From contig NZ_FNDR01000002.1 in the NCBI RefSeq assembly GCF_900099805.1, positions 558,001 to 622,000 on the forward strand: a stretch of 64,000 nt of DNA. The letters are read 5' to 3'. A program made the position numbers and the translations under genes. A model generated the notes under the pieces. That model did not search any database, had not been told where the DNA came from, and was given only the letters and a program-made list of their open reading frames with translations. This DNA is from Variovorax sp. OV700 (GTDB lineage Bacteria > Pseudomonadota > Gammaproteobacteria > Burkholderiales > Burkholderiaceae_C). Positions 7,309-27,718 of the stretch are shown piece by piece (within the stretch, counting starts at the first letter, position 1; the number at the start of each line of letters is the position of its first letter).

Positions 7309-7346
7309 GTTTGTCTCGATTCGTTTGTGGTGGATTGAAAGCTGTC

Positions 7347-7371: not shown

Positions 7372-7444
7372 AGGCACTTTAGGTTCGCCGTGCGCAACGA
7401 GCGAGAGTGCGCACGCGATAGCAGCTATCCACTCCGGCGAAAGC

Positions 7445-8368
7445 TCAGGCGGCGGAGCCTTCTTGCGAAAGGATCGCGGGTGCCATCGACAGAAGGAGCG
7501 CATGGATCTCTCGCGTCGCCAGCGTGTGTGGCCGGTGGCGGGCGACCGCGAGCACGATCGCGCGCGACAGCACAGGCTCCACGATTTTCAGAGCGGCGAG
7601 CCGGCCTTTGTCGTGCGCAGCGATTGACGGGGCGGTGATCGCAAAGCCGGCAGCGGACGCCGCGATCTCGTGCTGCAGGCGGATCGAGTTCGCCTCGGCG
7701 ACGACGCGCAAGCTCAGACCCATCTTGCGCGCGAGTACAACCAGCCGCTCGCGCAGCGGATGAGGTTCGGTCGGCAGCACCAGCGGCAGCCGGGTGACTT
7801 CTTCGAAGCGGATCTCCTGACGACTTGCGAGCGGGTCGCTGCTGGCGGCCACGAGGCATAGAGCGCCCTCCATCAGGACCGGCTCGTCCGCGCTCGCCTC
7901 GCCACCGTCACGCAGCAGCAAGGACAGGTCCAGTCGCCCCTGGTCCAGCATCTCCTGCAGCTGCGAACTGGAGCCCTCCGTCAGGTGCAACCGCACCTGG
8001 GGAAACTGCTGGAGGACGCGCTGGTAGAGCGGGCCCGCGAGCGACGGCACCGTCGAGGGCAACAGACCCAGGCGCACGTCGCCCACCGGCACCCCCCTGC
8101 TCGCGCGGACTTCGTCGGCAAAGCTCTCCGACTCGGCGATCAGGCGCTGAATCCGCGGGTACAGCTGCTCGCCAAGTTCGGTCAGGACCACGCCGCGCCC
8201 CGTCCGGCGAAACAAGGGGGACCCCGCGTCGCGCTCGAGTTGGGCAATGCACCGGCTCACCACCGATTGCGGAACATCCGCCGCCACGGCTGCGCGCGAC
8301 ACCGAGCCCAGCTCCGCCACCTTCACGAAGTGGTGCCAGGCCGCGTCGACGATGGACTTCATGCCCAT
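7445..8368 (-). CDS. LysR-family transcriptional regulator
   Basis: A 307-residue LysR regulator. The N-terminal helix-turn-helix spans about residues 10-65 and contains S-V-S-R-A-A and P-Q-S-V-V-S-R. A LysR substrate-binding domain follows from about residue 95 (V-G-D-V-R-L-G-L-L-P). I start it at the Met of M-G-M-K at 8368, since the open frame further upstream overlaps the FAD monooxygenase gene and is not LysR-like. It is close in sequence to the LysR at 32357-33286, which sits beside the paralogous operon, so the two regulators duplicated along with their enzymes. It probably controls the operon at 7308-2768, with a DapA- or OCD-related metabolite as effector. Confidence 0.88.
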   Translation of the reverse strand: MGMKSIVDAAWHHFVKVAELGSVSRAAVAADVPQSVVSRCIAQLERDAGSPLFRRTGRGVVLTELGEQLYPRIQRLIAESESFADEVRASRGVPVGDVRLGLLPSTVPSLAGPLYQRVLQQFPQVRLHLTEGSSSQLQEMLDQGRLDLSLLLRDGGEASADEPVLMEGALCLVAASSDPLASRQEIRFEEVTRLPLVLPTEPHPLRERLVVLARKMGLSLRVVAEANSIRLQHEIAASAAGFAITAPSIAAHDKGRLAALKIVEPVLSRAIVLAVARHRPHTLATREIHALLLSMAPAILSQEGSAA

Positions 8369-10733: not shown

Positions 10734-11081
10734 TCACTTGGCGGCGTGCGGTGATGTGATCCACAACGCCCCCTCATCGCATTCCAGCGCCACAGGCGTG
10801 AGCGCCTGCCCCACGCATGGCCCCCTGGTGCAGACCCCGGTGTCGATGTCGAACACCGCGCCATGCCCATAGCAAACGATCGAATTCCCGTCGGCGCTCA
10901 GGTAGGCATCCTTGCGCCAGGCCAGCGGTGCGCCGTCGACGTGCGGGCAGGCGTCGAGCCATCCCCTCACGCGGCCGCCGTGCCGGACTACGAACATCGC
11001 TTTTCGCGAGGTGCCTTCGGGAGCGAAGCCACGAGCCGCCTGGTCAGGGAGCTCGTCGAGCCTGCACAGGTACGCGCGCAC
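10734..11081 (-). CDS. Rieske [2Fe-2S] ferredoxin-like protein
   Basis: A small 115-residue Rieske protein. The cluster ligands are visible as C45-P-H47 and C70-Y-G-H73, and nothing else is fused to the domain. Proteins of this size pass electrons to ring-hydroxylating oxygenases or act as assimilatory Rieske subunits. The next gene upstream is a VOC dioxygenase (9 bp away) and the next downstream an MFS transporter, so no oxygenase alpha subunit adjoins it. The only Rieske oxygenase in the window is at 21339 and already has a reductase with its own ferredoxin domain. The partner of this ferredoxin is therefore open. Confidence 0.8.
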   Translation of the reverse strand: MRAYLCRLDELPDQAARGFAPEGTSRKAMFVVRHGGRVRGWLDACPHVDGAPLAWRKDAYLSADGNSIVCYGHGAVFDIDTGVCTRGPCVGQALTPVALECDEGALWITSPHAAK

Positions 11082-11090: not shown

Positions 11091-12041
11091 TCAATGCGCC
11101 TCGCCTCCCGGCGGCGGTGGGCCGCCCGGGGCCCACTTCTCGCGGTGCTGAAAGAGGAAGATCTGCGATTCATCGACCTGCATGGGTGCTTCGCGTGCGA
11201 TCCAGCTGTCGTCGTGCAGGTCCATGTCCGCGTCGTATTCCACGTGGCAGCCCACCGGGCTGTTGAAGTACCAGAACCAGTTGGAGCCGAACTTGTGCCG
11301 GCCGGGACCCCAATAGCTCTGGTAGCCCTTGGCTGCAAACGCGGTGCCGCGTTGAAGCACCGCGGTGGGACCCGAGAGATGGAATGTGAAATGCTCGACG
11401 CCCTTCATGAAGGCCGGCGTCTGGATCAGAAAGAGCGTGTGGTGGTCCAACGTTCCTGCCGGTTGCAGGAAACTGCCGGCATCGATGAATCGATCGGTGC
11501 ATCGGAAGCCGAGCCGGTCCACGTAGAACTTGGCGGCCTTGGCTTGATCGGGTACGAAGTACACGACGTGCGAGAGAGTCAGAGGCCGGTGCTCTGCATT
11601 CGGGCTTACGCCCAGGACGTTCGGGCTGCGTGCCGGCTTGCTGCCGGGCGAATTCACCGCTTCGCCAGGCAAGTCGATCTTGCGCCGAACCGAGACCTGG
11701 AACCCGAGCACGAAGCCCATGTCGTCGCTGGCTTCGATGGAACCATCAGCCAAGCGTTTCACTTCGCGGTCGCGACCAAGCTCATCGGCTATGGCGTCCA
11801 GCGACTGGCGATCCGCGACGCCATAGATCGTCTTGCGCAGCATCGTTCCAGTCTCCATGGGTGCAGGCAAGGACGCGTCGTCCCGACGTGCGATGACGAT
11901 GGAGGTGCCGTCGACAGCCTCAAAGCGGCCACCGGAATCACTGACGTCGACTGGCGTCAGGCCGTAGTCTGTGAAGTACTGAATGCAGGCTGCGACGTCA
12001 TCGACGCCAAAGACCAGAGAGTCAGGTCCGAGGATGTTCAT
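11091..12041 (-). CDS. VOC-family protein, extradiol (catechol 2,3-)dioxygenase-like
   Basis: A 316-residue protein with two vicinal-oxygen-chelate modules, at about residues 5-120 and 155-285. The second module holds what look like the 2-His-1-Glu iron ligands: H158 (L-S-H-V-V), H217 (E-H-F-T-F) and E268 (C-H-V-E-Y-D). This is the arrangement of type I extradiol dioxygenases, which open catechols next to the hydroxyls. The ATG at 12041 has an AGGAG box 6-7 bp before it. It is first in a likely operon with ferredoxin, MFS and FAD hydroxylase genes. An operator-like 17-bp inverted repeat lies 58 bp upstream. Confidence 0.75.
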   Translation of the reverse strand: MNILGPDSLVFGVDDVAACIQYFTDYGLTPVDVSDSGGRFEAVDGTSIVIARRDDASLPAPMETGTMLRKTIYGVADRQSLDAIADELGRDREVKRLADGSIEASDDMGFVLGFQVSVRRKIDLPGEAVNSPGSKPARSPNVLGVSPNAEHRPLTLSHVVYFVPDQAKAAKFYVDRLGFRCTDRFIDAGSFLQPAGTLDHHTLFLIQTPAFMKGVEHFTFHLSGPTAVLQRGTAFAAKGYQSYWGPGRHKFGSNWFWYFNSPVGCHVEYDADMDLHDDSWIAREAPMQVDESQIFLFQHREKWAPGGPPPPGGEAH

Positions 12042-12099: not shown

Positions 12100-12116
12100 C
12101 TAGACGACTCGTCTCG
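12100..12116. promoter_or_regulatory. Operator copy 1 (7-3-7 inverted repeat)
   Basis: CTAGACG-ACT-CGTCTCG. The inner 13 bp (AGACGA-C-TCGTCT) form a perfect palindrome. The same 7-3-7 pattern recurs at 17746, 17861 and 21280, always before a transcription unit. This copy lies 58 bp upstream of the VOC dioxygenase start. The likely binder is the TetR protein at 14195-14914, by inference. Confidence 0.6.
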
Positions 12117-12235
12117 ATAACAATTTAGGGCAAACCCTCGCGACGAAACGTCGAATCGGTCTTGTGAGATGCCTACTGCATTCGCGGCGAATACGGTCTA
12201 AGCCGCCAAAGCGCGCCTAGGTGGTTTCCCCATAT

Positions 12236-12258
12236 TTGCAATACGCAGCGTATTGCAA
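12236..12258. promoter_or_regulatory. Perfect 23-bp palindrome upstream of a Bug receptor gene
   Basis: TTGCAATACGC at 12236-12246, one central A, then the exact reverse complement GCGTATTGCAA at 12248-12258. It lies 59 bp before the Bug gene at 12318 and differs from the 17-bp operator in the same intergenic region. No T-run follows, so it is not a terminator. It is probably an operator for a dimeric regulator of unknown identity. Confidence 0.55.
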
Positions 12259-12317
12259 TAATCACCGCAAATACCTGGCGCAAATCACTCACTGCGTCGC
12301 AACTGCGGAGACAACCC

Positions 12318-13298
12318 ATGACGATCTCGAGACGGCAGGCGCTGGGCACTGGCGCCGCGATGCTGATGACACCCTTTGCAGGCCCGTCGGCAGCGCAGGA
12401 CTATCCCAACAAGCCCGTGCGCATCGTGGTCGCGAACCCACCCGGGTCGGGACTCGACGCGGATTCGCGCTTCTGGGCCGCAGGGCTGACATCTTTGCTC
12501 GGGCAGTCTGTGTTGGTCGATAACCGACCGGGTGGAGCAACGACCATAGGCACTTCGCTGGTCGCGAAGTCACCTCCGGATGGCTACACCCTGCTTGTCG
12601 GCATACCGAGTTCGCTTTGCTACATGTCGGAGCTGTACACGAAGCTTCCGTACAAGCCCGACGATTTCGAAGCCATCAGTCAGCTCACCACCTTGCGCAG
12701 CGTGATCGTTGCCCACCCGAACCTGCCCGCCTCCACGGCGTCCGAGCTTGTGGCGTTGGCCAAAGCCAAGCCAGGAGCCATTTCTGCTGGAACCCTCGGT
12801 ATCGGCACTTTCCAGCATTTGCTGGGCGAGTGGTTTGGAGCGATCACGGGAACCCGCTACCAGTTTGTGCCGTACAACACGACCAGTCCGTACACGGCGC
12901 TTCTGGGAGGCGAGACGCAAGTGATGTTTGACGCTCTTGCTGCCTCGATGAGCAATATCCAGGCAGGTAGGCTGAAGGCCTTAGCCGTGACCGGCAAGGG
13001 GCGGCATCCGCTGCTTCCGAACGTGCCGACTTTCGAGGAGTTGGGCATGGGGGAATACGACGCATCGACTTGGTTCGGCCTTCTTGCACCCGCGGGCACG
13101 CCGAAACCGATATTGGACAAGCTCGCTACTGCGTGCGCTGCTTTGGCCCGCAAGCCGGAGGTCATAAGCAGGTACCGCGACTACGGTGGAGAACCCGTGG
13201 GGAGCGCGCCTGCCGACTTCTCCACCTTCATCCGCTCTGAACGAGCGAAGTGGATTCCGGTAGTAAAGCGTTCCGGAATCAAGCTCGAGTTGACCTGA
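12318..13298 (+). CDS. Bug/TctC-family periplasmic solute receptor
   Basis: A 326-residue Bug receptor. The leader starts M-T-I-S-R-R-Q-A-L-G, a twin-arginine-like pattern, and cleavage is likely after S-A-A-Q near residue 27. Family signatures follow: R-I-V-V-A-N-P-P-G-S-G, D-N-R-P-G-G, and V-P-T-F-E-E-L-G. The usual V-P-F/Y-A-x-G-G after the leader is altered to A-N-P-P-G-S-G. It runs opposite to the VOC operon from a shared 276-bp promoter region with two palindromes. The next gene, an unexported binding-protein-like gene, follows after 21 bp. The ligand is presumably an aromatic or carboxylic acid used by this region. Confidence 0.85.
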   Translation: MTISRRQALGTGAAMLMTPFAGPSAAQDYPNKPVRIVVANPPGSGLDADSRFWAAGLTSLLGQSVLVDNRPGGATTIGTSLVAKSPPDGYTLLVGIPSSLCYMSELYTKLPYKPDDFEAISQLTTLRSVIVAHPNLPASTASELVALAKAKPGAISAGTLGIGTFQHLLGEWFGAITGTRYQFVPYNTTSPYTALLGGETQVMFDALAASMSNIQAGRLKALAVTGKGRHPLLPNVPTFEELGMGEYDASTWFGLLAPAGTPKPILDKLATACAALARKPEVISRYRDYGGEPVGSAPADFSTFIRSERAKWIPVVKRSGIKLELT

Positions 13299-13319
13299 GA
13301 CCGAATCGAACAAAACCCT

Positions 13320-14171
13320 ATGTCACCAACACTGCGAGTTCTTTGGTTCGTTCCTCCGCCGGTGGCCATCGTCGCCCAGGGATTGACGATGGCCAACGAA
13401 GTGACTGTCCTCTCCCGGCGCAACACGTCATCCGATGAACAGTTCGCTGCACTGGCGTCCGGTGAATCGGACGCCGTGGTCACGGCCATTGACAACGTCA
13501 TGGACTGGAATCTGCGCGATGGGCCGCAGGACTTTCGCGTTGTGGCGCAGCTTGAGCGCACGACGCCCTTGACCGTTGTCGGACAGCGAGATCGCACGTC
13601 CTTGGAGGATCTGCGTGGCGCCACGATCCTGGTCGATGCGCCTCGCAATGGATTCATTGTGGCTCTGCGCGCGATGCTCGCCGATGCTGAAGTTGGCCCT
13701 GAAGCGTATGTGTTGGCCCCCGTGGGCGGCGTAAAGGAAAGATACGAAGCCATCATCTCTGGGCAAGGCCACGCCACGCTGCTGGGCCCACCGTTTGACG
13801 GAATGGCCATTGCAGCGGGTCTTACCCGGCTCGCGACGGTGCAGGAACGTTACCCGGCATTTCCGGGACAGGGCCTTGTCGTGAGCTCGGCGGCTTTGGA
13901 ACGGATGCGCCCTGCTCTTTCGGCCTGGCTTCGCAACCTCGAGAATGCTCGCCAAAGCATGGGAATCGCACCTGAGGCCGCACGACAGGCACTGACGTCG
14001 GCAGGTTTCCCCGCGCCAGCGGTGGACGCCATGCTTGGTGCCACACCTGCCTCTCTGGTTCCAGATCGGGCCGGCATCGAGCTGCTCATCGAGCAGCGAC
14101 GCCGCGTTGGTCTGCCGGGAGCCAATACGAGCTACGAGGGGCTGGTGGAGAGCTCTCTGCTTGGGCGCTGA
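13320..14171 (+). CDS. Periplasmic-binding-protein-like (NMT1/SsuA-type) protein without signal peptide
   Basis: A 283-residue protein resembling type II binding proteins of the NitT/TauT or NMT1 group. It has E-Q-F-A-A-L-A-S-G-E-S-D-A-V near residue 45, the common G-E-x-D-x ligand loop, and D-L-R-G-A-T-I-L-V-D near residue 97. There is no leader peptide or lipobox: the N-terminus M-S-P-T-L-R-V-L-W-F runs straight into the first strand. It follows a Bug gene by 21 bp and has no ABC permease or ATPase beside it. It could be a cytoplasmic sensor, an enzyme with the binding-protein fold, or a receptor with a misread start. The function is unknown. Confidence 0.55.
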   Translation: MSPTLRVLWFVPPPVAIVAQGLTMANEVTVLSRRNTSSDEQFAALASGESDAVVTAIDNVMDWNLRDGPQDFRVVAQLERTTPLTVVGQRDRTSLEDLRGATILVDAPRNGFIVALRAMLADAEVGPEAYVLAPVGGVKERYEAIISGQGHATLLGPPFDGMAIAAGLTRLATVQERYPAFPGQGLVVSSAALERMRPALSAWLRNLENARQSMGIAPEAARQALTSAGFPAPAVDAMLGATPASLVPDRAGIELLIEQRRRVGLPGANTSYEGLVESSLLGR

Positions 14172-14194
14172 CGCGCACGCCCCCGCCCCCCGCC

Positions 14195-14914
14195 TCAGGC
14201 GAGCTTGCGCTTCTTGGCTTGTGTTGCGCCAGCAACCTTGCCGACGGGCGTCAGCATTTGCATGATGGCAGCGCAGTGCTGGTCTGCGAATTTCTTGTCC
14301 AATGGCAAGTGCCTCATGAGGAGCCGGAAATAGATTGGCGCATACAGGATGTCCATCTGCAACTCCGTGTCCAGGTCATCGCGTATTTCACCCAGGCGAC
14401 GCGCATCTTCAAGAACCTCGCGGACAACCGCTCGCCGCCCGTACCAGAAACGTTCACGGAACTCACGCAGTACATCTGGGTCGCTCTGCCCCTCGGCCAT
14501 GATCTGCGAAACGATGCGCCCGGACCAGCCGCTGTACTCCTCGACCAGCAGATGCACATGGCGCGTGAGGGCCTCGCGCGGGCTCTCGACCTTCGGCATG
14601 GTGGTGTGACTCAGGTGGGTGTGCAGAAATGCCTCTATGACCACCGCAGCTTTCGAGTTCCACCACCTGTAGATGGTCGCTTTGCCAACCCCTGCCTCGC
14701 GTGCGATCGATTCGATCGAGATCTGCTGCACAGGCGTCGCTTCCAGAAGCTTCAGCGTAGCTTCCAGAATGGCCATGCGCGACGAATCACTGCGAGCACG
14801 CCCGGGCGAGCGTGTTCGCGGCGCGACGGGACCTGGCGCGGCGGCCAGCTTGACTGCGGGTGAGCGGCCGCGAGCCTTGGCTGCGGTCCCTTGGGAAGAT
14901 GTTTTGGTAGGCAA
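14195..14914 (-). CDS. TetR/AcrR-family transcriptional repressor
   Basis: A 239-residue TetR-family protein. The N-terminal ~45 residues are basic, proline- and alanine-rich. The DNA-binding domain follows at about 47-95, with A-I-L-E-A-T-L-K-L-L and the helix-turn-helix I-A-R-E-A-G-V-G-K-A-T-I-Y-R-W-W. The C-terminal ligand domain resembles the TetR_C_11 type. The tail is lysine- and arginine-rich. It is convergent with the binding-protein-like gene, 23 bp apart. Four copies of a TetR-sized 7-3-7 inverted repeat lie before transcription units on both sides of it, so it is the best candidate for the regulator of the whole 8-25 kb region. The effector is unknown. Confidence 0.88.
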   Translation of the reverse strand: MPTKTSSQGTAAKARGRSPAVKLAAAPGPVAPRTRSPGRARSDSSRMAILEATLKLLEATPVQQISIESIAREAGVGKATIYRWWNSKAAVVIEAFLHTHLSHTTMPKVESPREALTRHVHLLVEEYSGWSGRIVSQIMAEGQSDPDVLREFRERFWYGRRAVVREVLEDARRLGEIRDDLDTELQMDILYAPIYFRLLMRHLPLDKKFADQHCAAIMQMLTPVGKVAGATQAKKRKLA

Positions 14915-15060
14915 GGAATTCCCGATGGCTATTTCGTAGGCATCATTATCTGGCCCCCGGCCCGTCCTAGAAAACCATCAGGTCGCGGCCGAGCGCGCCG
15001 CGGTGACTCACGCTGCTGCCAGGAACAGCGCAGCGACCGCCGAGCACAGAGGCCAGGTTT

Positions 15061-15636
15061 TCATTTCGAGCCAACTTCCGCATCGACATCCAGGTCGAGC
15101 AGGACGAAAGCCATTCGGCAGGGCTTGCCTGATCGGTTCGCCCAACTGTGGTTGGTCGCTCTCTGGATCAGGATGTCGCCGGCACGCATCAGCGTTTCCC
15201 CCTCGTCCATGAGGGCATGGATCTCGCCCTCCAACACGATGGCATAGTCCAGCGACTGCGTCTTGTGGAACCAGAAGTGACGGGCGTCGCCTTTGTCCCG
15301 AACCCCGTGCTCATCCAGGAACCGCGCCAATTTCGCCGGCTCGTAGGCCTCATCGGGCGGGAAGTCAACGACGCGAAGGAGGGACCCCCCCTTGGAGTGA
15401 AAGCCGAAGGCTTGTCCAGCGGGAGCCGGATCGGGCCCTGGTGCGGAGGCTTCGCCCGTCACCCACAGCACGTGGGCAAGGGGGGTGTTCGGATCCGTGG
15501 TGTGGTTCGGCGCCGGCCCATCCGATACGAAGACGGATTTGCCTTTCTCGTTCTCGCCGGTGACGATGCGGCGGACCGGCCGTACGTGCGCGGAGACTTT
15601 GTCGCGCAGTTGCTCGATCGTTGCTTCAGTATTCAC
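15061..15636 (-). CDS. Single-domain cupin protein
   Basis: A 191-residue protein with one cupin domain in its C-terminal half. The first metal motif is around H-F-W-F-H-K-T-x-S-x-D-Y, with a Glu in V-L-E-G-E, and the last His is in T-N-H-S-W. The N-terminal half starts R-R-I-V-T-G and carries V-F-V-S-D-G-P. The paralogue at 27129-27710 shares this layout, including a W-A-N-R-S-G-K-P-C-R-M block. It lies upstream of the TetR gene and downstream of two FAH-fold genes (67-bp gap) on the same strand. Relatives include gentisate-dioxygenase-like and small regulatory cupins. The enzyme activity is not certain. Confidence 0.75.
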   Translation of the reverse strand: MNTEATIEQLRDKVSAHVRPVRRIVTGENEKGKSVFVSDGPAPNHTTDPNTPLAHVLWVTGEASAPGPDPAPAGQAFGFHSKGGSLLRVVDFPPDEAYEPAKLARFLDEHGVRDKGDARHFWFHKTQSLDYAIVLEGEIHALMDEGETLMRAGDILIQRATNHSWANRSGKPCRMAFVLLDLDVDAEVGSK

Positions 15637-15703
15637 GCCCAGTTCCCTTTTCAGTATCGGTATTTCGAGTTGTTCGGTTGCGCGAAGTGCGCGAGCTGCG
15701 CGA

Positions 15704-16714
15704 TCAGGCCGGCTGCGGTGTCAAGGGTCCGACACACGCATTGCGCTGGCTGCCAAGCCCTTCGATGGACGACTCCATCAGGTCACCCTCGCGGAGGAAT
15801 CGGTTGTAGTGGGTGCCGTTCCCGGCAGGCGACCCGGTCGCGACGAGGTCGCCGGGCCAGAGTTGCACATGCGCGGTGATGTATTCGATCTGCCGGGCCA
15901 CGTCGAACAGCATGTCAGCCGTGGACTCGTCCTGCATGGTCTGCCCGTTCAGCTTCAGCGTGATGCGCAGATCCTGCGCATCGGGCACGAAGCAGGCGGG
16001 CACGAGTACGGGGCCGAAGGGCATGAAACTCGGCGCAGACTTGGACCTGAGCCAGTCGGTTCCCAACATCTTGTAATCCGTGCGTGCGATCAGGTCGCGC
16101 GCAGACACGTCGTTCACGATCGCGTAGCCCGCTATGTAGTCGAGCGCGCGCTCGCGGGTCACGTTGCGAGCGGGGCGGCCCATGATGACGGCGAGCTCCA
16201 GTTCCCAGTCGGGCTTGAGGGTGGTTGCAGGAAGCACGACGGAGTCGAACGCTCCCGTGATGGCCGACGGCAGTTTCGGAAAGACGTAGGGCTCGCCGTT
16301 CGCTTTCCGTTCATCCATCATGTCTTCGGCCCACTTGCGCAGTGCCGGCCCTTCGAGCCCCGGTGGCCCTACACCCATGTCCAGCGTCAGATCGACCACA
16401 TGCTTGCGGTAATTGGCTCCGGTGCAAAGCACCTGCCGAGGCAGATCGACGGGAGGATGCACCCGCAGGTTCGACATGGGCACCTCACAAGTGTGCTGCG
16501 CAGGGATGCGCTCCCGCAGCGCGCGCAGCACCATCAGGTTGCGATCCCAGTCCTGCAGCAGGTCGAGCACAGATGCATTCGCGGACCATTCGGCCCCGTA
16601 TTCCAGCGCCACGGTGTACAGGGCATGCAGGGGCAAGACACGATCGCCGATGCACATGCCGGCAAATCGATCGCCTCCTTCGTGAGAGAAGGTTCCCAGG
16701 GAGAAAGTCTTCAT
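15704..16714 (-). CDS. Fumarylacetoacetate hydrolase (FAH) fold protein
   Basis: A 336-residue FAH-superfamily protein. The metal-binding acids are in W-E-L-E-L-A-V-I-M-G near residue 170 and D-V-S-A-R-D near residue 205. The C-terminus has P-G-D-L-V-A-T-G-S-P-A-G. Members hydrolyse acylpyruvates or act as hydratases and decarboxylases after ring cleavage. The ATG at 16714 is chosen because homology begins there; an open frame further upstream overlaps the next FAH gene. It starts 7 bp after the stop of that gene, so the two are cotranscribed and may be partners or act on successive intermediates. Confidence 0.82.
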   Translation of the reverse strand: MKTFSLGTFSHEGGDRFAGMCIGDRVLPLHALYTVALEYGAEWSANASVLDLLQDWDRNLMVLRALRERIPAQHTCEVPMSNLRVHPPVDLPRQVLCTGANYRKHVVDLTLDMGVGPPGLEGPALRKWAEDMMDERKANGEPYVFPKLPSAITGAFDSVVLPATTLKPDWELELAVIMGRPARNVTRERALDYIAGYAIVNDVSARDLIARTDYKMLGTDWLRSKSAPSFMPFGPVLVPACFVPDAQDLRITLKLNGQTMQDESTADMLFDVARQIEYITAHVQLWPGDLVATGSPAGNGTHYNRFLREGDLMESSIEGLGSQRNACVGPLTPQPA

Positions 16715-16721
16715 TGGCTGC

Positions 16722-17720
16722 TCACATGAAAGGCTTGCGCGGGGTCGGCCACCAGGTGTCTTGCTCCCGCGGTCCCATGCGGTTGCGCAGCACGCCCACA
16801 CCCGAGACCTCCAGTTCCACCACGTCGCCAGGACTGAGGCTGCGACCGAGTTCAAGCGCAGAACCGTTGCCCATCGTGCCGGAACCGATCACGTCGCCAG
16901 GCTGCACATAGTCGCCCAGGGATACGTAGGCGATCAGCTCTTCGACGCTCCAGAGCATCTCCGAACTGTCGCCTTCGCCCCATGTCTCGCCGTTCACTCG
17001 AACGGACATACCGATGCGGTTGAGGTCAGGGAATTCATCGATCGTAGTGATCCAGGGGCCGATGCCATAAGCAAAGTCCTTGCTCTTCGTTGGACCCATG
17101 CCAATCGCAAACTCGTTGGCCTGCAGATCGCGAGCCGAGAAGTCATTGAAGATCGTTACGCCGAACAGGTGCGAGCGTGCTGTATCGGGGGTGATGTTGT
17201 GGGCGGTGCGTCCCATGACCCACCCAATCTCCAACTCGTAGTCCATCTTCTCAGCGCGCGCCGGCCAAGGCACCTCGGCCTCGTGCCCGATCACCGTCCA
17301 GGGCGAGCCCTTGAAATAGCCGGGCACTTGCAGCAACGCAGGCGCAGGCGTGAGCTTCATTCGCTCATGAAACTGGCGGATGTGCTTCACGAACGTGAGG
17401 CCGTCGCGCACCACGGACGGGTCACAAGCCGCGGCCCATTGCAAGCCTTCGATCGACTTCGAGGCATCGTTCCCAAACCGGGTGGCGGCTTCGTGAGCCG
17501 TCTCAAGGAACTCCTCGCCAAGAGCAATGGCTGCCGACATGCTCTCAGGGAACACGGCCGAGGCGTAGCGCAGTGCGGCGTCGCGGCTTGCCCCGCGCGA
17601 CTGCTGCCTCAGGACTTCCGCGGCGCGCAGGTCGATGACACGAGATTGCTCCGGCTGCACCAGGCAAATGCGTTGAACGGGGCCATCGACCCCTTGCATC
17701 ACAAATCTTCCGAGCTTCAC
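16722..17720 (-). CDS. Fumarylacetoacetate hydrolase (FAH) fold protein
   Basis: A 332-residue FAH-superfamily protein starting with GTG at 17720, preceded by AGGAGT at a normal distance. Metal ligands lie in M-D-Y-E-L-E-I-G-W-V-M-G near residue 160 and in F-N-D-F-S-A-R-D near residue 190. The C-terminus carries Q-P-G-D-V-I-G-S-G-T-M-G-N-G-S. It is first in a minus-strand operon with a second FAH gene and a cupin. A 17-bp operator-like repeat lies 26-42 bp before its start. Likely role: hydrolysis of a ring-cleavage product such as an acylpyruvate; the exact substrate is unknown. Confidence 0.83.
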   Translation of the reverse strand: MKLGRFVMQGVDGPVQRICLVQPEQSRVIDLRAAEVLRQQSRGASRDAALRYASAVFPESMSAAIALGEEFLETAHEAATRFGNDASKSIEGLQWAAACDPSVVRDGLTFVKHIRQFHERMKLTPAPALLQVPGYFKGSPWTVIGHEAEVPWPARAEKMDYELEIGWVMGRTAHNITPDTARSHLFGVTIFNDFSARDLQANEFAIGMGPTKSKDFAYGIGPWITTIDEFPDLNRIGMSVRVNGETWGEGDSSEMLWSVEELIAYVSLGDYVQPGDVIGSGTMGNGSALELGRSLSPGDVVELEVSGVGVLRNRMGPREQDTWWPTPRKPFM

Positions 17721-17745
17721 TGCGACTCCTGTAGTTGGACAATTA

Positions 17746-17762
17746 CGATACTGTACGTCTCG
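17746..17762. promoter_or_regulatory. Operator copy 2 (7-3-7 inverted repeat)
   Basis: CGATACT-GTA-CGTCTCG. It lies 26-42 bp upstream of the GTG start of the FAH-fold gene, a position that would block RNA polymerase. It shares the CGATAC and CGTCTCG half-sites with the copy at 17861. Both sit in the same divergent promoter region. Confidence 0.6.
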
Positions 17763-17860
17763 TTTTCTACGTGGTATTTCAGTGTTTACCCTAGGAAGAC
17801 TTCTGGGATTTTGGACTCACCTCCAGTTGACTTGACCGCACATGGATCATATAGTCATTT

Positions 17861-17877
17861 CGATACGGCTCGTCTCG
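17861..17877. promoter_or_regulatory. Operator copy 3 (7-3-7 inverted repeat)
   Basis: CGATACG-GCT-CGTCTCG, the closest copy to the consensus CGAKACG-N3-CGTMTCG. It lies 71 bp upstream of the BKACE gene in the 228-bp divergent region shared with the FAH operon. Binding by the TetR protein at 14195 is inferred. Confidence 0.62.
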
Positions 17878-17948
17878 TACAAGTTCGGGAGCGCGCAACC
17901 ACGGTGCCGCTCCAGCCACTCCTTCACCTCAACCCTTGGCAGTCATAC

Positions 17949-18833
17949 ATGAGCAAGCGTTCCCCCGTCATCATTTCTTGTGCCTTGACCGGCGCCGCAG
18001 ACACCCGGGCGAAAAACCCCGCCGTTCCCGCGTCGCCTCAGGAAATAGCGGACCAGGCCATCAATGCCGCGAAAGCTGGTGCGTCTATCGTCCACATCCA
18101 CGTGAGAGACCCGGAGACGGGCAAGTCTTCCACCAAATTCGCCTACTACGAGGAAGTCGTGCAGCGCATCCGCGCCTCCCGGTGCGACGTGCTGATCAAC
18201 CTCACGACCGGTCCGGGCACGATGCTGACGGTGCCTACCGATGCTCCGTTTCGAGTGGCACCAATTCCCAACGCGGAACTCATGACGCCAAGCGAACGGG
18301 TCGCGCACGTCGTCAAACTCAGGCCGGACATCTGCAGCCTCGACGTCGCCACCATGAGCTTTGGCGACGCGGTCTTCGTCAATCCAGCCAATCATCTGCG
18401 CGAAATGGCTGCGCAAATTCAGGCGTGCGGCGTCACCATGGAATTGGAAGTCTTCGACTTCGGCCATGCGCGCCTGGCGAGCCATCTGATTGCGACTGGT
18501 GCTATTCCAAAAAGCGCGTACTTCCAGCTTTGCATGTCAGTCCCCTGGGGCGCACCCGCCACGCCGACAGTCCTGGCCGAGATGCAGCGCCTGCTTCCCC
18601 CGGGAGCGCATTGGAGCGCCTTTGGTGTCGGCCCGGAGCAGTTTCCGACGGTAGCGGTGGCTGCCATCCTCGGCGGGCACGTACGCGTCGGCCTCGAGGA
18701 CAACCTGTACGTCGCGCCCGGCATGCTCGCGCGCGACAACGCGGAGCTCGTCACCAAGGCCGCAAGAATCGTCGAGGACCTCGGATTTCAAGTCGCCACG
18801 CCCGACTATGCGCGCTCGACCCTTTTGGGCTGA
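17949..18833 (+). CDS. BKACE-family beta-keto acid cleavage enzyme (DUF849)
   Basis: A 294-residue protein of the BKACE family, zinc TIM-barrel enzymes. They condense a beta-keto acid with acetyl-CoA, releasing acetoacetate and a new CoA ester; the type enzyme is Kce of lysine fermentation. Zinc ligands H49 and H51 lie in V-H-I-H-V-R-D, and the late Glu is E250 in G-L-E-D-N. The N-terminal S-C-A-L-T-G-A is also typical. It is the first plus-strand gene after the double-operator region, followed 17 bp later by a thioesterase. It could cleave a beta-keto acid formed from the ring-cleavage product. The specificity is unknown. Confidence 0.85.
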   Translation: MSKRSPVIISCALTGAADTRAKNPAVPASPQEIADQAINAAKAGASIVHIHVRDPETGKSSTKFAYYEEVVQRIRASRCDVLINLTTGPGTMLTVPTDAPFRVAPIPNAELMTPSERVAHVVKLRPDICSLDVATMSFGDAVFVNPANHLREMAAQIQACGVTMELEVFDFGHARLASHLIATGAIPKSAYFQLCMSVPWGAPATPTVLAEMQRLLPPGAHWSAFGVGPEQFPTVAVAAILGGHVRVGLEDNLYVAPGMLARDNAELVTKAARIVEDLGFQVATPDYARSTLLG

Positions 18834-18850
18834 GCCGGGAGTGAAGCGAG

Positions 18851-19318
18851 ATGTCGGAAACCCAGCCAGCGGCAGACAATCCAACCCGTTCCTACATCGC
18901 AGAGGCGGTAGCCTCTGGAGGGCGAAACATTCCCCTGGAGGTCAATCCCGCACTGGCCGGCTTGTCTGCCCTGCTGGTCGAGAGCGATGAAAGCGAACTC
19001 GTGATCAGGTTCACCGCGCCGCACAGTGCTACGCAGGGCAACGGCGTGGTGGGTGGCGGCACGCTGGCAAACATGCTGGACCTCTCGATGGCGATGGGAG
19101 TGCTGTCGCGGCTCCAGCCCGGCTACACCTGCGCCACCGTTAGCCTGACCATCAACATGCAGAGCGCCGGCCACCAGGGCCATTTCGTCGCGGTGGCGGG
19201 CGTGGACAGGGTCGGACGGCAGATTGCCTTTGCGCACGCGAAGCTCTTTGATGCAGATCGCTCTCGCCTGATCGCGAGCGGGACCTCATCGCTCGTGGTA
19301 ATGCCCGTTCGGGCGTGA
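18851..19318 (+). CDS. PaaI-like hotdog-fold thioesterase
   Basis: A 155-residue single hotdog domain of the PaaI/YdiI group. Visible marks are the A-T-Q-G-N-G-V-V-G-G-G-T-L-A-N-M-L-D segment near residues 60-77, where the catalytic acid is Asp77, and T-V-S-L-T-I-N-M-Q near 95. Such enzymes hydrolyse acyl- or aryl-CoA thioesters, often to rescue CoA from dead-end intermediates. It follows the BKACE gene by 17 bp, and BKACE makes a CoA ester, so it may release that product or protect the CoA pool. The substrate is not known. Confidence 0.82.
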   Translation: MSETQPAADNPTRSYIAEAVASGGRNIPLEVNPALAGLSALLVESDESELVIRFTAPHSATQGNGVVGGGTLANMLDLSMAMGVLSRLQPGYTCATVSLTINMQSAGHQGHFVAVAGVDRVGRQIAFAHAKLFDADRSRLIASGTSSLVVMPVRA

Positions 19319-19425
19319 TGCGATGCGGACCGAAGAATCATCATTGCGGAGTAACGATCGCTGGGGCCGCCGAGATGAATGCCCAGCCTTGAACCTCTCA
19401 CCGTTGCAACTCATCCACGACCTCG

Positions 19426-20217
19426 ATGCCACAAGTCAACGCAAACGGCGCGCGCCTCCACTACCGATTGGAAGGCGACCCGTCCAAGCCAAGCCTGCTC
19501 CTGGTGCATCCCGTCGGTTCAGACCTCAGCCTCTGGGACCAAGTCGTTCCCGGGCTTCTCAAGCACTTTCAAGTGCTCCGGTTCGATTTGCGCGGACACG
19601 GCGGCAGCGAGGCAACTTCCGGCGAATACACATTGGCCCTGCTTGCCGAGGACATCCTGCACGTTGCCAGCAAGCTGGGACTCCCGCGGTTTGCCACCTG
19701 CGGCGTCTCCATCGGTGGCATGGCCGCGGTGCAAGCGGCGAGTCTGGCGCCGGAACGAGTCACCGCATTGGTGATCTGCAGCACCGCGTCGCGGCTCTCG
19801 CCTCCCCCCGGTGGATGGGACGCGCGCGCAAAGGCGGCCATGGAGTTTGGCATGGAGCCGCTGGCGTCAGCCATGATCGAGCGGATGGTCAGCGGCCCGT
19901 TTCGCAGCGGAGGACATCCGGAAATTCACACGGTTCGGAACGTCTTCGCGGCGATGGACCCTCAAGGTTACGCGAGCGCATGCGCAGTGCTTCGAGATAC
20001 CGACCTGGGGCCTCTTTTGGCTTCGCTGAGCACGCCCACGCTGGTTGTATCGGGCGACTTGGACGTCTTGGTGCCGCCGGAGGTAGGAAGCGGCATTGCA
20101 GAAAAACTGCCGCACGGGAAGCATGTCGTGTTGTCGTGCGGTCACTTCCCCCCCTTGGAAGCGCCCAACGCGTTTGTCGAGCTGCTCCGCGAATATTGCA
20201 GTTCTCCCGGGCGCTGA
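19426..20217 (+). CDS. Alpha/beta hydrolase, 3-oxoadipate enol-lactonase-like
   Basis: A 263-residue alpha/beta hydrolase. The nucleophile is Ser95 in C-G-V-S-I-G-G-M, the acid is in S-G-D-L-D-V-L-V near residue 210, and the His is in C-G-H-F-P-P near residue 240. The overall text, including R-F-D-L-R-G-H-G-G-S-E, is like PcaD, the enol-lactonase of the beta-ketoadipate pathway, though no other pca gene is nearby. It lies 107 bp after the thioesterase on the same strand. A lactone or C-C hydrolase acting after aromatic ring cleavage is the likely role. No clear ribosome site precedes the ATG. Confidence 0.8.
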   Translation: MPQVNANGARLHYRLEGDPSKPSLLLVHPVGSDLSLWDQVVPGLLKHFQVLRFDLRGHGGSEATSGEYTLALLAEDILHVASKLGLPRFATCGVSIGGMAAVQAASLAPERVTALVICSTASRLSPPPGGWDARAKAAMEFGMEPLASAMIERMVSGPFRSGGHPEIHTVRNVFAAMDPQGYASACAVLRDTDLGPLLASLSTPTLVVSGDLDVLVPPEVGSGIAEKLPHGKHVVLSCGHFPPLEAPNAFVELLREYCSSPGR

Positions 20218-20255
20218 AACCATGACCGAGTGACGCGCAGAGCAACCTTGGAGAA

Positions 20256-21200
20256 TCATCGACCGCGGCCGTGGTCGGGATAGCCTTCGAAAGTCCGCTT
20301 TACCAGTTCACGAATCCAGATCACCGCAGGATCGTGATGGAAGCGAGGGTGCCAGTGCTGGTTGAGAGCATAGGGCACCAGTTCCACGGGTGCCCGGACA
20401 ACGCGCACGGTGCCATACCGTTGAAAAACGTTTGCCAACTCCAAGGGCACGGTGGCGATCAGGTCAGGTTCTTGCTCCAGCAACAACGGCACGGTCAGAA
20501 AGTGCGGGGTCGCCAAAAAGACGGTCCTCTTGATGCCCTGCTCCTCGATCGCGCTGTCGTAGGCGTCACCATGGCGCCCGGCGAGCGATACGACAACATG
20601 AGACATCTTCTCGAATTGCCTGAGTGTCAATCGCTGCCCCACATCTCGATTGCGGGCACTCACGATCGTCACCAGGGAGTGCATGAACAACCGTTGACGA
20701 TACAGGCCTTCGGGCGCTGTACGGATAGATCCGAGCGCAAGATCCGCCTCCCCGGCGGCAAGCAAGCCTTCTATTTGCTCGGAGGGGACCTGCAGCGTTC
20801 GAACACGGCAGTTGGGGGCAAGAGCTCGCAACTGCTTGAGCAGCGGCGGCAGAAAGACCAGTTCACCCATATCTGTCATGCAAAGCGTAAAAGCTCTTCG
20901 CGATGTGGCCGGATCAAACGCCGCCTCTGACAGGATGCGCTGCCTGACGGCGGCCACAACGTCGACAACCGCAGCTCTCAATGCTTCCGCTTTGCGGGTG
21001 GGGACCATGCCCTCTGGCGCCTTGACAAACAACTGATCATCGAAGAAGTCGCGCAATCTGTTCAACGCATGGCTGATCGCACTTTGCGTGACTCCCAGAC
21101 CCTCGGCCGCGCGTGTGACGCTCTGCTCGCGCAGGAGCGCGTCAAAGATCGTCAGCAAATTGAGATCCAGTTGCCTGAGGCGTGCATCGTTTGTCGGCAT
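20256..21200 (-). CDS. LysR-family transcriptional regulator (NahR/NodD-like group)
   Basis: A 314-residue LysR protein. The helix-turn-helix lies at about residues 8-66: L-D-L-N-L-L-T-I-F-D-A-L then V-T-R-A-A and T-Q-S-A-I-S-H-A-L. This start pattern is typical of the NahR/NodD/LinR group, which often answers to aromatic compounds. The ATG at 21200 is preceded by AGGAAG at good spacing. It is divergent from the Rieske oxygenase genes and separated from them by 138 bp with two GAATGAG-like inverted repeats. It probably activates the oxygenase operon in response to the aromatic substrate. Confidence 0.88.
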   Translation of the reverse strand: MPTNDARLRQLDLNLLTIFDALLREQSVTRAAEGLGVTQSAISHALNRLRDFFDDQLFVKAPEGMVPTRKAEALRAAVVDVVAAVRQRILSEAAFDPATSRRAFTLCMTDMGELVFLPPLLKQLRALAPNCRVRTLQVPSEQIEGLLAAGEADLALGSIRTAPEGLYRQRLFMHSLVTIVSARNRDVGQRLTLRQFEKMSHVVVSLAGRHGDAYDSAIEEQGIKRTVFLATPHFLTVPLLLEQEPDLIATVPLELANVFQRYGTVRVVRAPVELVPYALNQHWHPRFHHDPAVIWIRELVKRTFEGYPDHGRGR

Positions 21201-21229
21201 AGCGCTTCCTGAGCATTCGGGAGCCATTT

Positions 21230-21277
21230 GAATGAGCAACTCTCATTCTATTTATGAGCACCATGAGGTTGACTCAT
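21230..21277. promoter_or_regulatory. Two LysR-type inverted repeats in the oxygenase promoter
   Basis: GAATGAG at 21230-21236 pairs perfectly with CTCATTC at 21242-21248 (5-bp spacer). ATGAG at 21263-21267 pairs with CTCAT at 21273-21277, again with a 5-bp spacer. A recognition site plus an activation site upstream of the target promoter is the usual LysR arrangement. The neighbouring LysR protein at 20256-21200 is the obvious binder. Confidence 0.5.
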
Positions 21278-21279
21278 TT

Positions 21280-21296
21280 CGATCCCAATCGTATCG
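21280..21296. promoter_or_regulatory. Operator copy 4 (degenerate 7-3-7 inverted repeat)
   Basis: CGATCCC-AAT-CGTATCG. The right half is a perfect consensus half-site and the left half keeps CGAT. It lies 43 bp before the Rieske oxygenase start, just after the LysR repeats. It is weaker than copies 1-3 and could be fortuitous, but its position before another aromatic operon fits. Confidence 0.42.
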
Positions 21297-21338: not shown

Positions 21339-22421
21339 ATGTTTATCAAGAACACCTGGTACGTAGCGGCCTGGGATCACGAAGTCAAAACGGACGGTCT
21401 GTTCGCACGGACGATCATCGGTGTACCCATCCTCATGTACCGCACGTCCGACGGCAAGCTGACCGTCTTGGAAGATCGTTGCTGCCATCGGGGCGCCCCG
21501 CTGTCGATGGGAAAGCGCGAGGGCGACTGCGTGCGGTGCATGTATCACGGCCTCAAATTCGACGCGTCCGGACAATGCATCGAGGCGCCCGCCCAGCCCA
21601 GAGTTCCCCCGCAGGCAAAGGTTCGAACCTTTCCTGTGGTGCAGCAACACCGTTGGATCTGGATATGGATGGGTGATCCCGCAAAGGCTGATCCCGCGCT
21701 GATTCCCGAAACCCCTTGGCTGGACCATCCTGATTGGCGAGGGCTCGATGGGTACATCCACTACGACGTCAACTATCTCCTTATCTGCGACAACCTCCTG
21801 GACTTCTCGCATCTGCCCTTCGTACATCCGACCACTCTGGGCGGGGGCGTGGACTACGCCGAGCATCCTCCCAAGGTCGAGCGGCTCGAAGACGGCGTCC
21901 GCATCACGCGTTGGGCGCTGAATACTGAACCGCCTCCATTTGTGAAGGCGGTGAAGGACTGGAATGGAAAGGTCGACCGCTGGAACATCTACAACTTCAC
22001 CATCCCCGCCATCCTTTTGATGGACTCGGGAAACGCGCCGGCCGGCACCGGCGCACCGGAAGGCCGCCGCGTTGACGCAGCGGAGTTTCGCGGCTGCCAA
22101 GCGATCACTCCCGAGACGGAAAACTCGACCCACTATTTCTTCTCGCACCCGCACAACTTCTCGATCGACAAACCGGAAGTGACGAAGTCGATTCACCAGA
22201 ATGTGGTCACCGCCTTCGAAGAAGACCGAGCCATCATCTCCGCCCAACAGAAGAATCTCTCACTGGACCCGGCATTCAAGATGATGCCCTTTGCCATGGA
22301 TGCTGCGCTGTCCCAGTTCCGCTGGGCCGTCAAACGTCGCTTGGAGCAAGAGGCCGCCGAGGCCTCATCAGCGGCGGGCGTGACCGAGCAGTCGATCGCT
22401 CCGCCCCGCCGGGGCACATGA
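21339..22421 (+). CDS. Rieske aromatic oxygenase, vanillate O-demethylase VanA-like
   Basis: A 360-residue oxygenase component. The Rieske ligands are C48-x-H50 and C67-x-x-H70. The mononuclear iron site is seen in D-N-L-L-D-F-S-H-L-P-F-V-H near residues 150-162. Length and motif text match the VanA group, which demethylates methoxy-aromatics or hydroxylates small aromatic acids. A reductase gene overlaps its end by 4 bp (ATGA), giving the usual VanAB pair. The operon is divergent from a LysR gene and has both LysR-type repeats and an operator copy in front. Vanillate itself is not implied; the family accepts many methoxy-, toluene- or phthalate-type substrates. Confidence 0.85.
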   Translation: MFIKNTWYVAAWDHEVKTDGLFARTIIGVPILMYRTSDGKLTVLEDRCCHRGAPLSMGKREGDCVRCMYHGLKFDASGQCIEAPAQPRVPPQAKVRTFPVVQQHRWIWIWMGDPAKADPALIPETPWLDHPDWRGLDGYIHYDVNYLLICDNLLDFSHLPFVHPTTLGGGVDYAEHPPKVERLEDGVRITRWALNTEPPPFVKAVKDWNGKVDRWNIYNFTIPAILLMDSGNAPAGTGAPEGRRVDAAEFRGCQAITPETENSTHYFFSHPHNFSIDKPEVTKSIHQNVVTAFEEDRAIISAQQKNLSLDPAFKMMPFAMDAALSQFRWAVKRRLEQEAAEASSAAGVTEQSIAPPRRGT

Positions 22422-23368
22422 TGATGTTGGACGTCGTTGTGTCACGCCTCACGCATGAGGCCGAGGCGGTGGTGGGCGTTGAATTGCGTTCCGCTGATGG
22501 CGGACTGCTTCCCGCCTTCACCGCGGGCTCACATGTGGACGTGCATTTGCCTGGAGGACTGTGCCGGCAATACTCACTCACCAATGCGCCCCACGAGCGG
22601 GAGCGCTACTGCATCGGGGTCGGCTTTGCGCATGATTCCCGCGGCGGCTCGCGACATGTGCATGAACGGCTGCGCGAAGGCGACCGGCTCGAGATCAGTG
22701 CGCCGCGGTCCTTGTTCGGTCTCGATCTTCAGGCCGAGGAGCATGTGTTCATCGCTGGGGGCATCGGCATCACGCCGATCATGAGCATGATTGAAGCCTG
22801 CAAGGCCGATGGTCAGAGCTGGCGTCTCCTCTACTCCGTACGCACGCGCGCCCGGGCAGCCTACCTTTGGAGGCTGGCCGAGCACTACGACCAAGTCCAC
22901 CTGCACGTCGACGAAGAGCAAGGGGGACCTCCCAGTCTTGCTCACCTCCTGTCTTCCGTGCCGAATGCTGCTCACCTCTACTGTTGTGGCCCTGGGCCCC
23001 TGATGGATGCAGTCGAAACCGCAGCCGCAGACCGTCTGTCTGGCTCCGTGCATTTCGAACGATTCTCGGCTCAGGGCGCAAAGGTCGACGCCGCTGCGGA
23101 TGGCGCGTTTCGAATCAAGCTGAGCCGTAAAGGCACCACATTGATGGTGCCAGCTGGGCGCTCGATCCTCCAGACGCTTGAGGACAACGGGATAGAGCTG
23201 CCGTGCTCATGTCGTGAAGGTTTGTGCCGCACCTGTGAGACCCCGCTGCTCGCGGGCAAGGCAGACCATCGCGACTTCGTCCTGAGTGAGGAAGAGCGCA
23301 GCGCCAACACCTCCATCATCCTTTGCGTGTCTCGCGCGCTCGACGCCGAGCTGGTGCTGGATCTCTGA
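22418..23368 (+). CDS. Oxygenase reductase, VanB-like (FMN/NAD plus C-terminal 2Fe-2S)
   Basis: A 316-residue class IA reductase. A flavin-binding barrel (Q-Y-S-L-T-N) comes first, then the NAD site with G-G-I-G-I-T-P near residue 110, and a plant-type ferredoxin domain at the C-terminus. Its iron-sulfur Cys residues lie in C-S-C-R-E-G-L-C-R-T-C plus a later L-C-V-S. It moves electrons from NAD(P)H to the Rieske oxygenase encoded just upstream. The start codon overlaps the oxygenase stop by 4 bp, and three ATG codons in a row make the exact start uncertain by 3-6 bp. Confidence 0.88.
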   Translation: MMMLDVVVSRLTHEAEAVVGVELRSADGGLLPAFTAGSHVDVHLPGGLCRQYSLTNAPHERERYCIGVGFAHDSRGGSRHVHERLREGDRLEISAPRSLFGLDLQAEEHVFIAGGIGITPIMSMIEACKADGQSWRLLYSVRTRARAAYLWRLAEHYDQVHLHVDEEQGGPPSLAHLLSSVPNAAHLYCCGPGPLMDAVETAAADRLSGSVHFERFSAQGAKVDAAADGAFRIKLSRKGTTLMVPAGRSILQTLEDNGIELPCSCREGLCRTCETPLLAGKADHRDFVLSEEERSANTSIILCVSRALDAELVLDL

Positions 23369-27710: not shown

Positions 27711-27718
27711 GATGTTTC

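What the first reader, a model, noticed from the sequence alone, without database searches (positions are those of the whole stretch)
12100..21296. Four copies of one 17-bp inverted repeat define a TetR regulon across about 9 kb
The sequence shows CTAGACG-ACT-CGTCTCG (12100), CGATACT-GTA-CGTCTCG (17746), CGATACG-GCT-CGTCTCG (17861) and CGATCCC-AAT-CGTATCG (21280). All have a 7-3-7 layout and all lie 20-80 bp before a start codon: VOC dioxygenase, FAH pair, BKACE and Rieske oxygenase. TetR-type operators have this size, and one TetR gene (14195-14914) sits in the middle. If right, aromatic hydroxylation, ring cleavage, FAH steps and BKACE cleavage form a single pathway under one repressor. Copy 4 is the weakest.
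Basis: partly seen in the sequence, partly recalled or inferred. Interest (0 to 1): 0.75.

Follow-up and report, generated by a model that had tools for sequence, protein, structure and literature searches.

The report
Repressor regulon for isoflavone breakdown genes
Seven copies of one DNA palindrome lie in front of a bacterium's genes that are predicted to break down aromatic compounds, likely plant isoflavones, and they are predicted to be the binding sites of a TetR repressor encoded in the same cluster, which would give the pathway a single on/off switch.

Summary
The four sites are real, lie where stated, and are not chance. They belong to a larger set: seven 17-bp palindromes (consensus CGATACG-N3-CGTATCG, A/T flanks), including 12239 in the window and two just upstream of it, before DUF1302/DUF1329 and YCF48/MMPL genes. 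A matrix built from other genera's sites ranks these seven first to seventh in 100 kb, with a clear gap to the eighth. The same palindrome occurs in 22 of 22 loci of other records with a 50-83% relative of the TetR (67 sites; 0 in a reversed-sequence control), and is absent at four related ring-cleavage genes outside such clusters. In 101 genomes of the genus, the close TetR and FAH1 occur in the same 7. The related repressor PhlF of Pseudomonas has the same palindrome between phlF and phlA. The TetR gene ends the FAH1-FAH2-cupin operon behind 17746, so it is probably autoregulated. Gene content resembles the Variovorax isoflavone (ifc) cluster, whose regulator is not named in the parts of that paper I read. 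Site 21280 is not the weakest copy here but is poorly conserved across genera.

The parts
12100..12116 (.). operator 1, CTAGACG-ACT-CGTCTCG, before the VOC operon (minus strand)
   Evidence: aligned with operators in 4 other Variovorax genomes
   Evidence: the same position holds an operator in 4 other Variovorax genomes; rank 6 with the matrix from other genera
17746..17762 (.). operator 2, CGATACT-GTA-CGTCTCG, before the FAH1-FAH2-cupin-TetR operon (minus strand)
17861..17877 (.). operator 3, CGATACG-GCT-CGTCTCG, before BKACE (plus strand)
21280..21296 (.). operator 4, CGATCCC-AAT-CGTATCG, between the LysR gene and the Rieske oxygenase gene
   Evidence: conserved in Variovorax YR216 (25.1), degenerate in three Burkholderia loci (7.4 each)
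17827..17855 (+). sigma-70-like promoter TTGACT-17-TATAGT; operator 3 follows the -10 hexamer after 5 bases
   Evidence: sequence; TTGAC and the first TA of the -10 box invariant in six Variovorax genomes, the own one included
17782..17791 (.). conserved element GTGTTTACCC, starting 36 bp after the start of operator 2; same element, same distance, at the operator G000:C13:557027
   Evidence: role unknown
14195..14914 (-). TetR repressor (TetR_N + TetR_C_11), last gene of the FAH1 operon
   Evidence: order FAH1-FAH2-cupin-TetR kept in OAS795, JS1663, G325, G378; FMO inserted in G314; rearranged in YR216
15061..15636 (-). cupin, IfcD-like
15704..16714 (-). FAA hydrolase FAH2
16722..17720 (-). 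FAA hydrolase FAH1
17949..18833 (+). BKACE (PF05853)
   Evidence: the ORF 17936-18844 is a wrong frame
18851..19318 (+). 4HBT thioesterase
19426..20217 (+). alpha/beta hydrolase
11091..12041 (-). VOC (putative ring-cleavage dioxygenase), IfcB/FdeC-like
10734..11081 (-). small Rieske-domain protein
9533..10711 (-). MFS transporter
8401..9513 (-). FAD monooxygenase, IfcA-like
12318..13298 (+). TctC-type substrate-binding protein
13320..14171 (+). conserved protein without Pfam match; relatives in 13 of the 22 loci L058-L079
21339..22421 (+). Rieske oxygenase (VanA_C type)
22418..23368 (+). oxygenase reductase
363..2771 (+). MMPL transporter, second gene behind the operator pair upstream of the window

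Best explanation
Seven copies of one palindrome (CGATACG-N3-CGTATCG type) lie in the promoter regions of this predicted catabolic cluster and are likely the operators of the cluster's own PhlF-type TetR repressor (14195-14914), which is predicted to keep the pathway off until an aromatic inducer, probably an isoflavone, removes it. Shown by sequence: at two divergent promoter regions the plus-strand operator follows the -10 hexamer of a TTGAC-17-TAnnnT type promoter after 5 or 6 bases, so a bound dimer would cover the likely transcription start. Shown by sequence: three divergent gene pairs each carry two operators, 115-139 bp apart (VOC/TctC, FAH1/BKACE, DUF1302/YCF48), and the LysR/Rieske region carries one. 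Inferred: binding by this TetR, repression, autoregulation (its gene ends the operon behind 17746), and release by an isoflavone-type flavonoid or an early breakdown product. Inferred: the enzymes form one A-ring-cleaving route (FAD monooxygenase, VOC dioxygenase, FAH hydrolases, cupin, BKACE), and the DUF1302/DUF1329/YCF48/MMPL proteins serve transport.
For: Conservation: with a matrix from six own sites, 22 of 22 loci of other records carrying a 50-83% TetR relative have sites of score 18 or more (67 sites in 410 kb; 0 in the reversed control). Sites of score 14 or more within 350 bp before the gene: FAH1 14 of 15 (the miss is a 28% paralog), VOC 13 of 15, own genes included. A matrix from 53 sites in other genera puts the seven own sites at ranks 1-7 of 100 kb (16.7-31.9; rank 8 is 11.5; reversed control maximum 11.8). 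Footprints: operators largely invariant, most of the other intergenic DNA diverged. Co-occurrence: FAH1 is in 7 of 101 genus genomes, the same 7 that have the TetR at 76% or more. Natural control: 4 VOC relatives (56-70%) outside such clusters have no site within 1.5 kb (maximum 6.5); 7 of 7 inside have one (at least 22.6; five directly before VOC, two before the MFS gene ahead of it). Reader: the genome's two other TetR_C_11 proteins above cut-off have different recognition helices. PhlF: the recalled PhlF operator core was found in 6 of 298 Pseudomonas genomes (2 exact, 4 with one mismatch), each time between a phlA-like and a phlF-like gene; that TetR is 30-32% identical, helix GASKPTIYRWWGNK against GVGKATIYRWWNSK. 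Substrate: FMO 74% to one of Acidovorax A79, TetR 65% to GmRootV118_59560 of Variovorax V118, strains that by name are daidzein degraders in PMC11069340.
Against: No binding, expression or induction data. The loci were found through peptides of the TetR's recognition helix, and the 53 training sites were picked with the matrix of the own sites, so these tests are not fully independent; some loci share a genome. Site 21280 is degenerate (7.4) at the same promoter in three Burkholderia loci, and 2 of 11 Rieske genes carry a site, the own one included. Loose matches are at control level genome-wide, and one good-looking intergenic site lies elsewhere (C13:258986). The window's tetR has no site within 350 bp before it; autoregulation rests on the operon reading. 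TetR proteins of this genome without a TetR_C_11 match above cut-off were not compared. The sequences of the characterised Ifc enzymes were not in hand. Five loci carry two TetR relatives (L062, L069, L071, L075, L076), so one-repressor control may not hold everywhere.
Confidence: 0.75

Rival explanations
1. Another regulator binds the palindromes, for instance one of the LysR proteins (7445-8368 or 20256-21200), and the TetR is a bystander.
For: Two LysR genes lie in the cluster, and site 21280 lies in the LysR/Rieske intergenic region.
Against: A close LysR1 relative is in 1 of the 22 other loci (L058, 88%) and a LysR2 relative (60-63%) in 3 of 22 (L069, L075, L076), while sites are in 22 of 22. 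LysR boxes are usually of the T-N11-A type (recalled). In many distant TetR loci the palindrome lies close before tetR.
Confidence: 0.08
2. The regulon is as described, but the substrate and inducer are another aromatic (a flavanone, another phenylpropanoid or an acylphloroglucinol), not isoflavones.
For: VOC and FMO relatives also serve naringenin breakdown (fde). PhlF and PhlH answer to acylphloroglucinols, and PhlH binds the flavonoid phloretin. The window adds a VanA_C-type Rieske oxygenase not among the enzymes named ifc.
Against: Three VOC genes with a 36-37% FMO neighbour in related genomes (36.3% is the identity the paper gives for FdeE against IfcA) lack the sites, while the window's FMO is 74% to that of a daidzein degrader.
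Confidence: 0.35
3. Site 21280 is not a TetR operator but part of the LysR-controlled Rieske promoter.
For: TATCGTTA at its right end is kept in three Burkholderia loci while the rest of the palindrome is lost. Only 2 of 11 Rieske genes have a site.
Against: It scores 28.6, second of seven, with the matrix from other genera, and Variovorax YR216 has an intact site there (25.1). In OAS795 the Rieske gene lies in the BKACE operon behind an operator.
Confidence: 0.2
4. The palindromes are chance or a dispersed repeat without function.
For: Genome-wide counts at up to 2 mismatches (bare) or 3 (flanked) are at control level.
Against: Cross-genus conservation with 0 control hits at score 18 and footprints.
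Confidence: 0.01

Closest known systems
PhlF and its operator phO (Pseudomonas 2,4-diacetylphloroglucinol cluster)
   Same: TetR_N + TetR_C_11 protein, similar recognition helix, 17-bp 7-3-7 palindrome CGAAACG-TAC (or TGC)-CGTATCG between phlF and phlA. phO lies downstream of the phlA start site (review PMC8003664, passages), as the BKACE operator probably does. By my count PhlF Phe165, reported to stack on the phloroglucinol moiety (PMC11878095, passages), aligns with a Tyr here.
   Different: 30-32% identity. PhlF guards antibiotic synthesis; this one would guard a catabolic pathway with seven operators.
ifc isoflavone catabolism cluster of Variovorax V35 (PMC11069340; abstract, Results and Discussion sections and passages read)
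   Same: FAD monooxygenase, VOC/glyoxalase and cupin as in ifcA, ifcB, ifcD; cluster upregulated by daidzein in V35. Strains named there as daidzein degraders (A79, V118) have relatives of the window's FMO and TetR.
   Different: 'TetR' does not occur in its main text except inside tetracycline, and 'operator' and 'repress' not at all. The window adds a Rieske oxygenase and DUF1302/DUF1329/YCF48/MMPL genes; whether V35 has these was not checked.
fde naringenin cluster with FdeR (Herbaspirillum)
   Same: 8-hydroxylation and A-ring dioxygenation by FMO and glyoxalase-type enzymes.
   Different: FdeR is a naringenin-dependent activator (abstract start in a search listing; LysR type recalled). Probable fde-type VOC genes in related genomes lack the palindromes.
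Flavonoid-responsive TetR proteins such as FrrA, QdoR/LmrA, TtgR (recalled)
   Same: TetR repressors said to answer to flavonoids.
   Different: Not compared by sequence here; the 29 structure-sequence matches of the window's TetR bear mostly generic names and none of these. Their known targets are mainly efflux or quercetin genes (recalled).

Membership tests
PhlF-type TetR repressor | TetR_N helix-turn-helix plus TetR_C_11 (PF16859) | tested here: met
   (E 4.5e-10 and 8.6e-25); the PhlF-like protein of L168 is also PF16859
PhlF-type TetR repressor | 17-bp 7-3-7 palindrome of the PhlF-operator type at target promoters | tested here: met
PhlF-type TetR repressor | binds that DNA and is released by a phenolic ligand | not testable with these tools
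   needs EMSA/ITC
PhlF-type TetR repressor | ligand-stacking Phe165 of PhlF | tested here: inconclusive
   aligned residue is Tyr: aromatic, but not the same residue
ifc isoflavone cluster | IfcA-type FAD monooxygenase | tested here: inconclusive
   74% to an FMO of Acidovorax A79; the IfcA sequence itself was not in hand
ifc isoflavone cluster | IfcB-type VOC dioxygenase and IfcD-type cupin | tested here: inconclusive
   families and neighbourhood fit; cupin 77% to one of Paraburkholderia steynii, named in the paper as an ifc carrier; IfcB and IfcD sequences not in hand
ifc isoflavone cluster | induced by and degrading daidzein | not testable with these tools
   needs culture work
fde naringenin cluster | FMO close to FdeE rather than IfcA | tested here: inconclusive
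   the window FMO is 36-37% to FMO genes beside three unregulated VOC relatives, the identity level the paper gives for FdeE against IfcA; no FdeE sequence in hand

The most novel reading that the evidence does not exclude
The cluster's TetR is the missing isoflavone sensor of the ifc pathway in root bacteria. It belongs to a clade of repressors that has kept one operator word, CGATACG-N3-CGTATCG, from Pseudomonas antibiotic control (PhlF) to Cyanobacteria, Actinomycetota, Chloroflexota and Bacillota, while the ligand and the regulated pathway changed: 24 of the 35 loci with the most distant TetRs (29-46% identity) carry the palindrome at score 18 or more (39 sites against 1 in the control).
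Probability: 0.45. Interest if true: 0.65.

Novelty: new member of a known kind. Interest (0 to 1): 0.5.

Why it matters
If right, it supplies the regulator and the operator code of a pathway by which root-associated bacteria consume the signals and antibacterials that legumes secrete, and makes the inducer question directly testable. It gives an operator word that would predict targets of many unnamed TetR proteins, and a part related to the PhlF switch used in synthetic biology. It extends the pathway's likely gene list (FAH hydrolases, BKACE, Rieske oxygenase, DUF1302/DUF1329/YCF48/MMPL genes); the ifc paper left the enzyme for its step X2 to X3 unidentified, and the co-regulated FAH hydrolases are candidates (inference).

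Tried and rejected
Bare consensus genome scan (CGAKACG-N3-CGTMTCG, 2 mismatches): uninformative, 153 places against 151 in the reversed control. With A/T flanks at up to 3 mismatches: 31 against 40 in the control; of its 8 places at up to 2 mismatches, 6 are in the cluster, one is intergenic elsewhere, one is in an ORF (no separate control for 2 mismatches). ORF coverage as a test of the one-mismatch places: rejected, since mechanical ORFs also cover the cluster site 557144.

BKACE as bait: the first frame taken (17936-18844) was wrong, which wasted one scan. The right frame gave, besides the own gene, only relatives of 44-55% in the family; the three of 24 other genomes' loci that I scanned for the motif had no sites.

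Family-wide TetR search: one true relative (57%) besides the own genome in 299; five further TetRs are 33-35% and stand beside other genes. Three of the five have a palindrome of score 19-21 at the tetR start, two only 12.6. In the genus, three more genomes have 40-46% TetRs beside other genes, with one or two sites each.

Site 4 as weakest copy: rejected within the genome, but it is poorly conserved across genera.

Literature (open-licence PMC library only): the listings (15 of 2,082, 2 of 2, 1 of 1 and 8 of 175 papers shown) show no paper that by title or abstract start couples a TetR repressor to ifc or to isoflavone breakdown. The PhlF operator letters were not found in the library text; the primary PhlF paper is not held.
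Full report
The observation. The four palindromes are in the window at the stated coordinates. Three reach at least 13 of 14 consensus positions, against about 0.1 expected per 64 kb. The 3-kb loci of the other eight score at most 11.6 with a matrix from other genera. Looser matching is at control level.

More sites. Reading just outside the window showed a divergent promoter between DUF1302/DUF1329 genes and YCF48/MMPL genes with two more palindromes, at G000:C13:557027 and 557144. They are 117 bp apart; the pair 17746/17861 is 115 bp apart, and in both pairs the element GTGTTTACCC starts 36 bp after the start of the first site. Comparison with other Variovorax genomes showed that 12239, a perfect 7-3-7 palindrome before the TctC gene, is the partner of 12100. 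A matrix from 53 sites of other genera (picked with the own-site matrix) ranks exactly these seven first in the 100 kb around (16.7-31.9; eighth 11.5; reversed control maximum 11.8).

Anatomy. By sequence, operator 17861 follows the -10 hexamer of TTGACT-17-TATAGT after 5 bases, and 557144 that of TTGACG-17-TAATAT after 6. In six Variovorax genomes (own included) the two operators, GTGTTT[A/T]CCC, TTGAC and the start of the -10 box are most of what stays invariant in the FAH1/BKACE intergenic region. Genes behind the sites on the minus strand: VOC, a small Rieske protein, MFS, FAD monooxygenase and further genes to an aldehyde dehydrogenase (2768-4243); and FAH1, FAH2, cupin, TetR. On the plus strand: TctC; BKACE, thioesterase, alpha/beta hydrolase; Rieske oxygenase and reductase. 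Operons are read from spacing, not from transcripts; gene calls are from my own script.

Conservation. A scan of one genome per species with the TetR as bait gave 78 loci. In the 22 loci with TetRs of 50-83% identity (L058-L079) all 22 have sites of score 18 or more, 67 in all, 0 in the reversed control. For L080-L100 it is 9 of 21 loci (21 sites, control 1), for L101-L135 24 of 35 (39 sites, control 1). Loci are not all independent: L066/L070 share a genome, L077/L078 overlap, L058/L059 are Variovorax genomes used again below, and L063 is the record of G150. Sites of score 14 or more within 350 bp before the gene, own genes included: FAH1 14 of 15, VOC 13 of 15, cupin 6 of 10, MFS 6 of 9, tetR 17 of 28, Rieske 2 of 11, FMO 2 of 14, FAH2 0 of 16; FAH2 and FMO mostly stand inside operons. 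VOC relatives occur in 10 genomes; the four copies outside such clusters have no site (maximum 6.5), including a second copy in G383, a genome that does have the TetR cluster. An exact consensus search in 14 genomes found 14 places in 10 of them, with one control place; by coordinates seven of the 14 fall in the cluster.

Which protein. The bait was the TetR's recognition helix, so co-occurrence alone would be circular; the genus search with FAH1 is not. Further support: the genome's two other TetR_C_11 proteins above cut-off have other helices (a fourth, sub-threshold match was not read). The PhlF operator core, recalled from memory, was found in 6 of 298 Pseudomonas genomes, each time between a PhlA-like gene and a TetR gene 30-32% identical to ours; in the one locus put to Pfam these are a ketosynthase-III and a TetR_C_11 protein, with a DAPG hydrolase beyond. 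PhlF binding at an inverted repeat downstream of the phlA start is reported (PMC8003664, passages), and its release by 2,4-diacetylphloroglucinol and its binding of pyoluteorin (PMC11878095, passages).

Which pathway. PMC11069340 describes the daidzein-induced ifc cluster: FMO IfcA, VOC IfcB, cupins IfcD1/D2. The window has all three families. Its FMO is 74% identical to one of Acidovorax A79 and its TetR 65% to GmRootV118_59560; strains of these names degrade daidzein in that paper. The paper's main text has no TetR regulator or operator by word search, and the listings showed no such paper.

Verdict. Binding, repression and the isoflavone inducer remain inferences.

Noticed in passing
window 17782-17791; G000:C13:557064-557073: Element GTGTTTACCC at the same distance (36 bp) from the FAH1-side and DUF1302-side operators; the FAH1-side one is kept in six Variovorax genomes (one with T for A). 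An activator site or unusual promoter core is possible. AGGGCAAACCCT at 12127-12138 lies similarly near operator 12100.
   Followed up: partly
G000:C13:258986-259008: One further A/T-flanked palindrome (AAACGATACTGGCCGTCTTGTTT) far from the cluster, intergenic in my gene call, with no clear target gene.
   Followed up: partly
window 27150-33274: A second set of genes resembling those at 2768-8368: aldehyde dehydrogenase (90%), DHDPS-like (83%), LysR (60%), TctC (49%), ornithine-cyclodeaminase-like (46%), without operators of this type; suggests a duplicated module.
   Followed up: partly
L186, L187, L188: Variovorax VOC genes (67-69%) beside a 36-37% FMO, probably fde-type naringenin clusters, without the palindrome.
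   Followed up: partly
L062, L069, L071, L075, L076: Two TetR relatives per locus in Pseudomonas, Burkholderia and Paraburkholderia, possibly two sensors on one operator word.
   Followed up: no
L116, L117, L128, L130 and others of L101-L135: The palindrome close before tetR-like genes in distant phyla (Actinomycetota, Chloroflexota, Bacillota; phylum names recalled), at several loci as two copies.
   Followed up: partly
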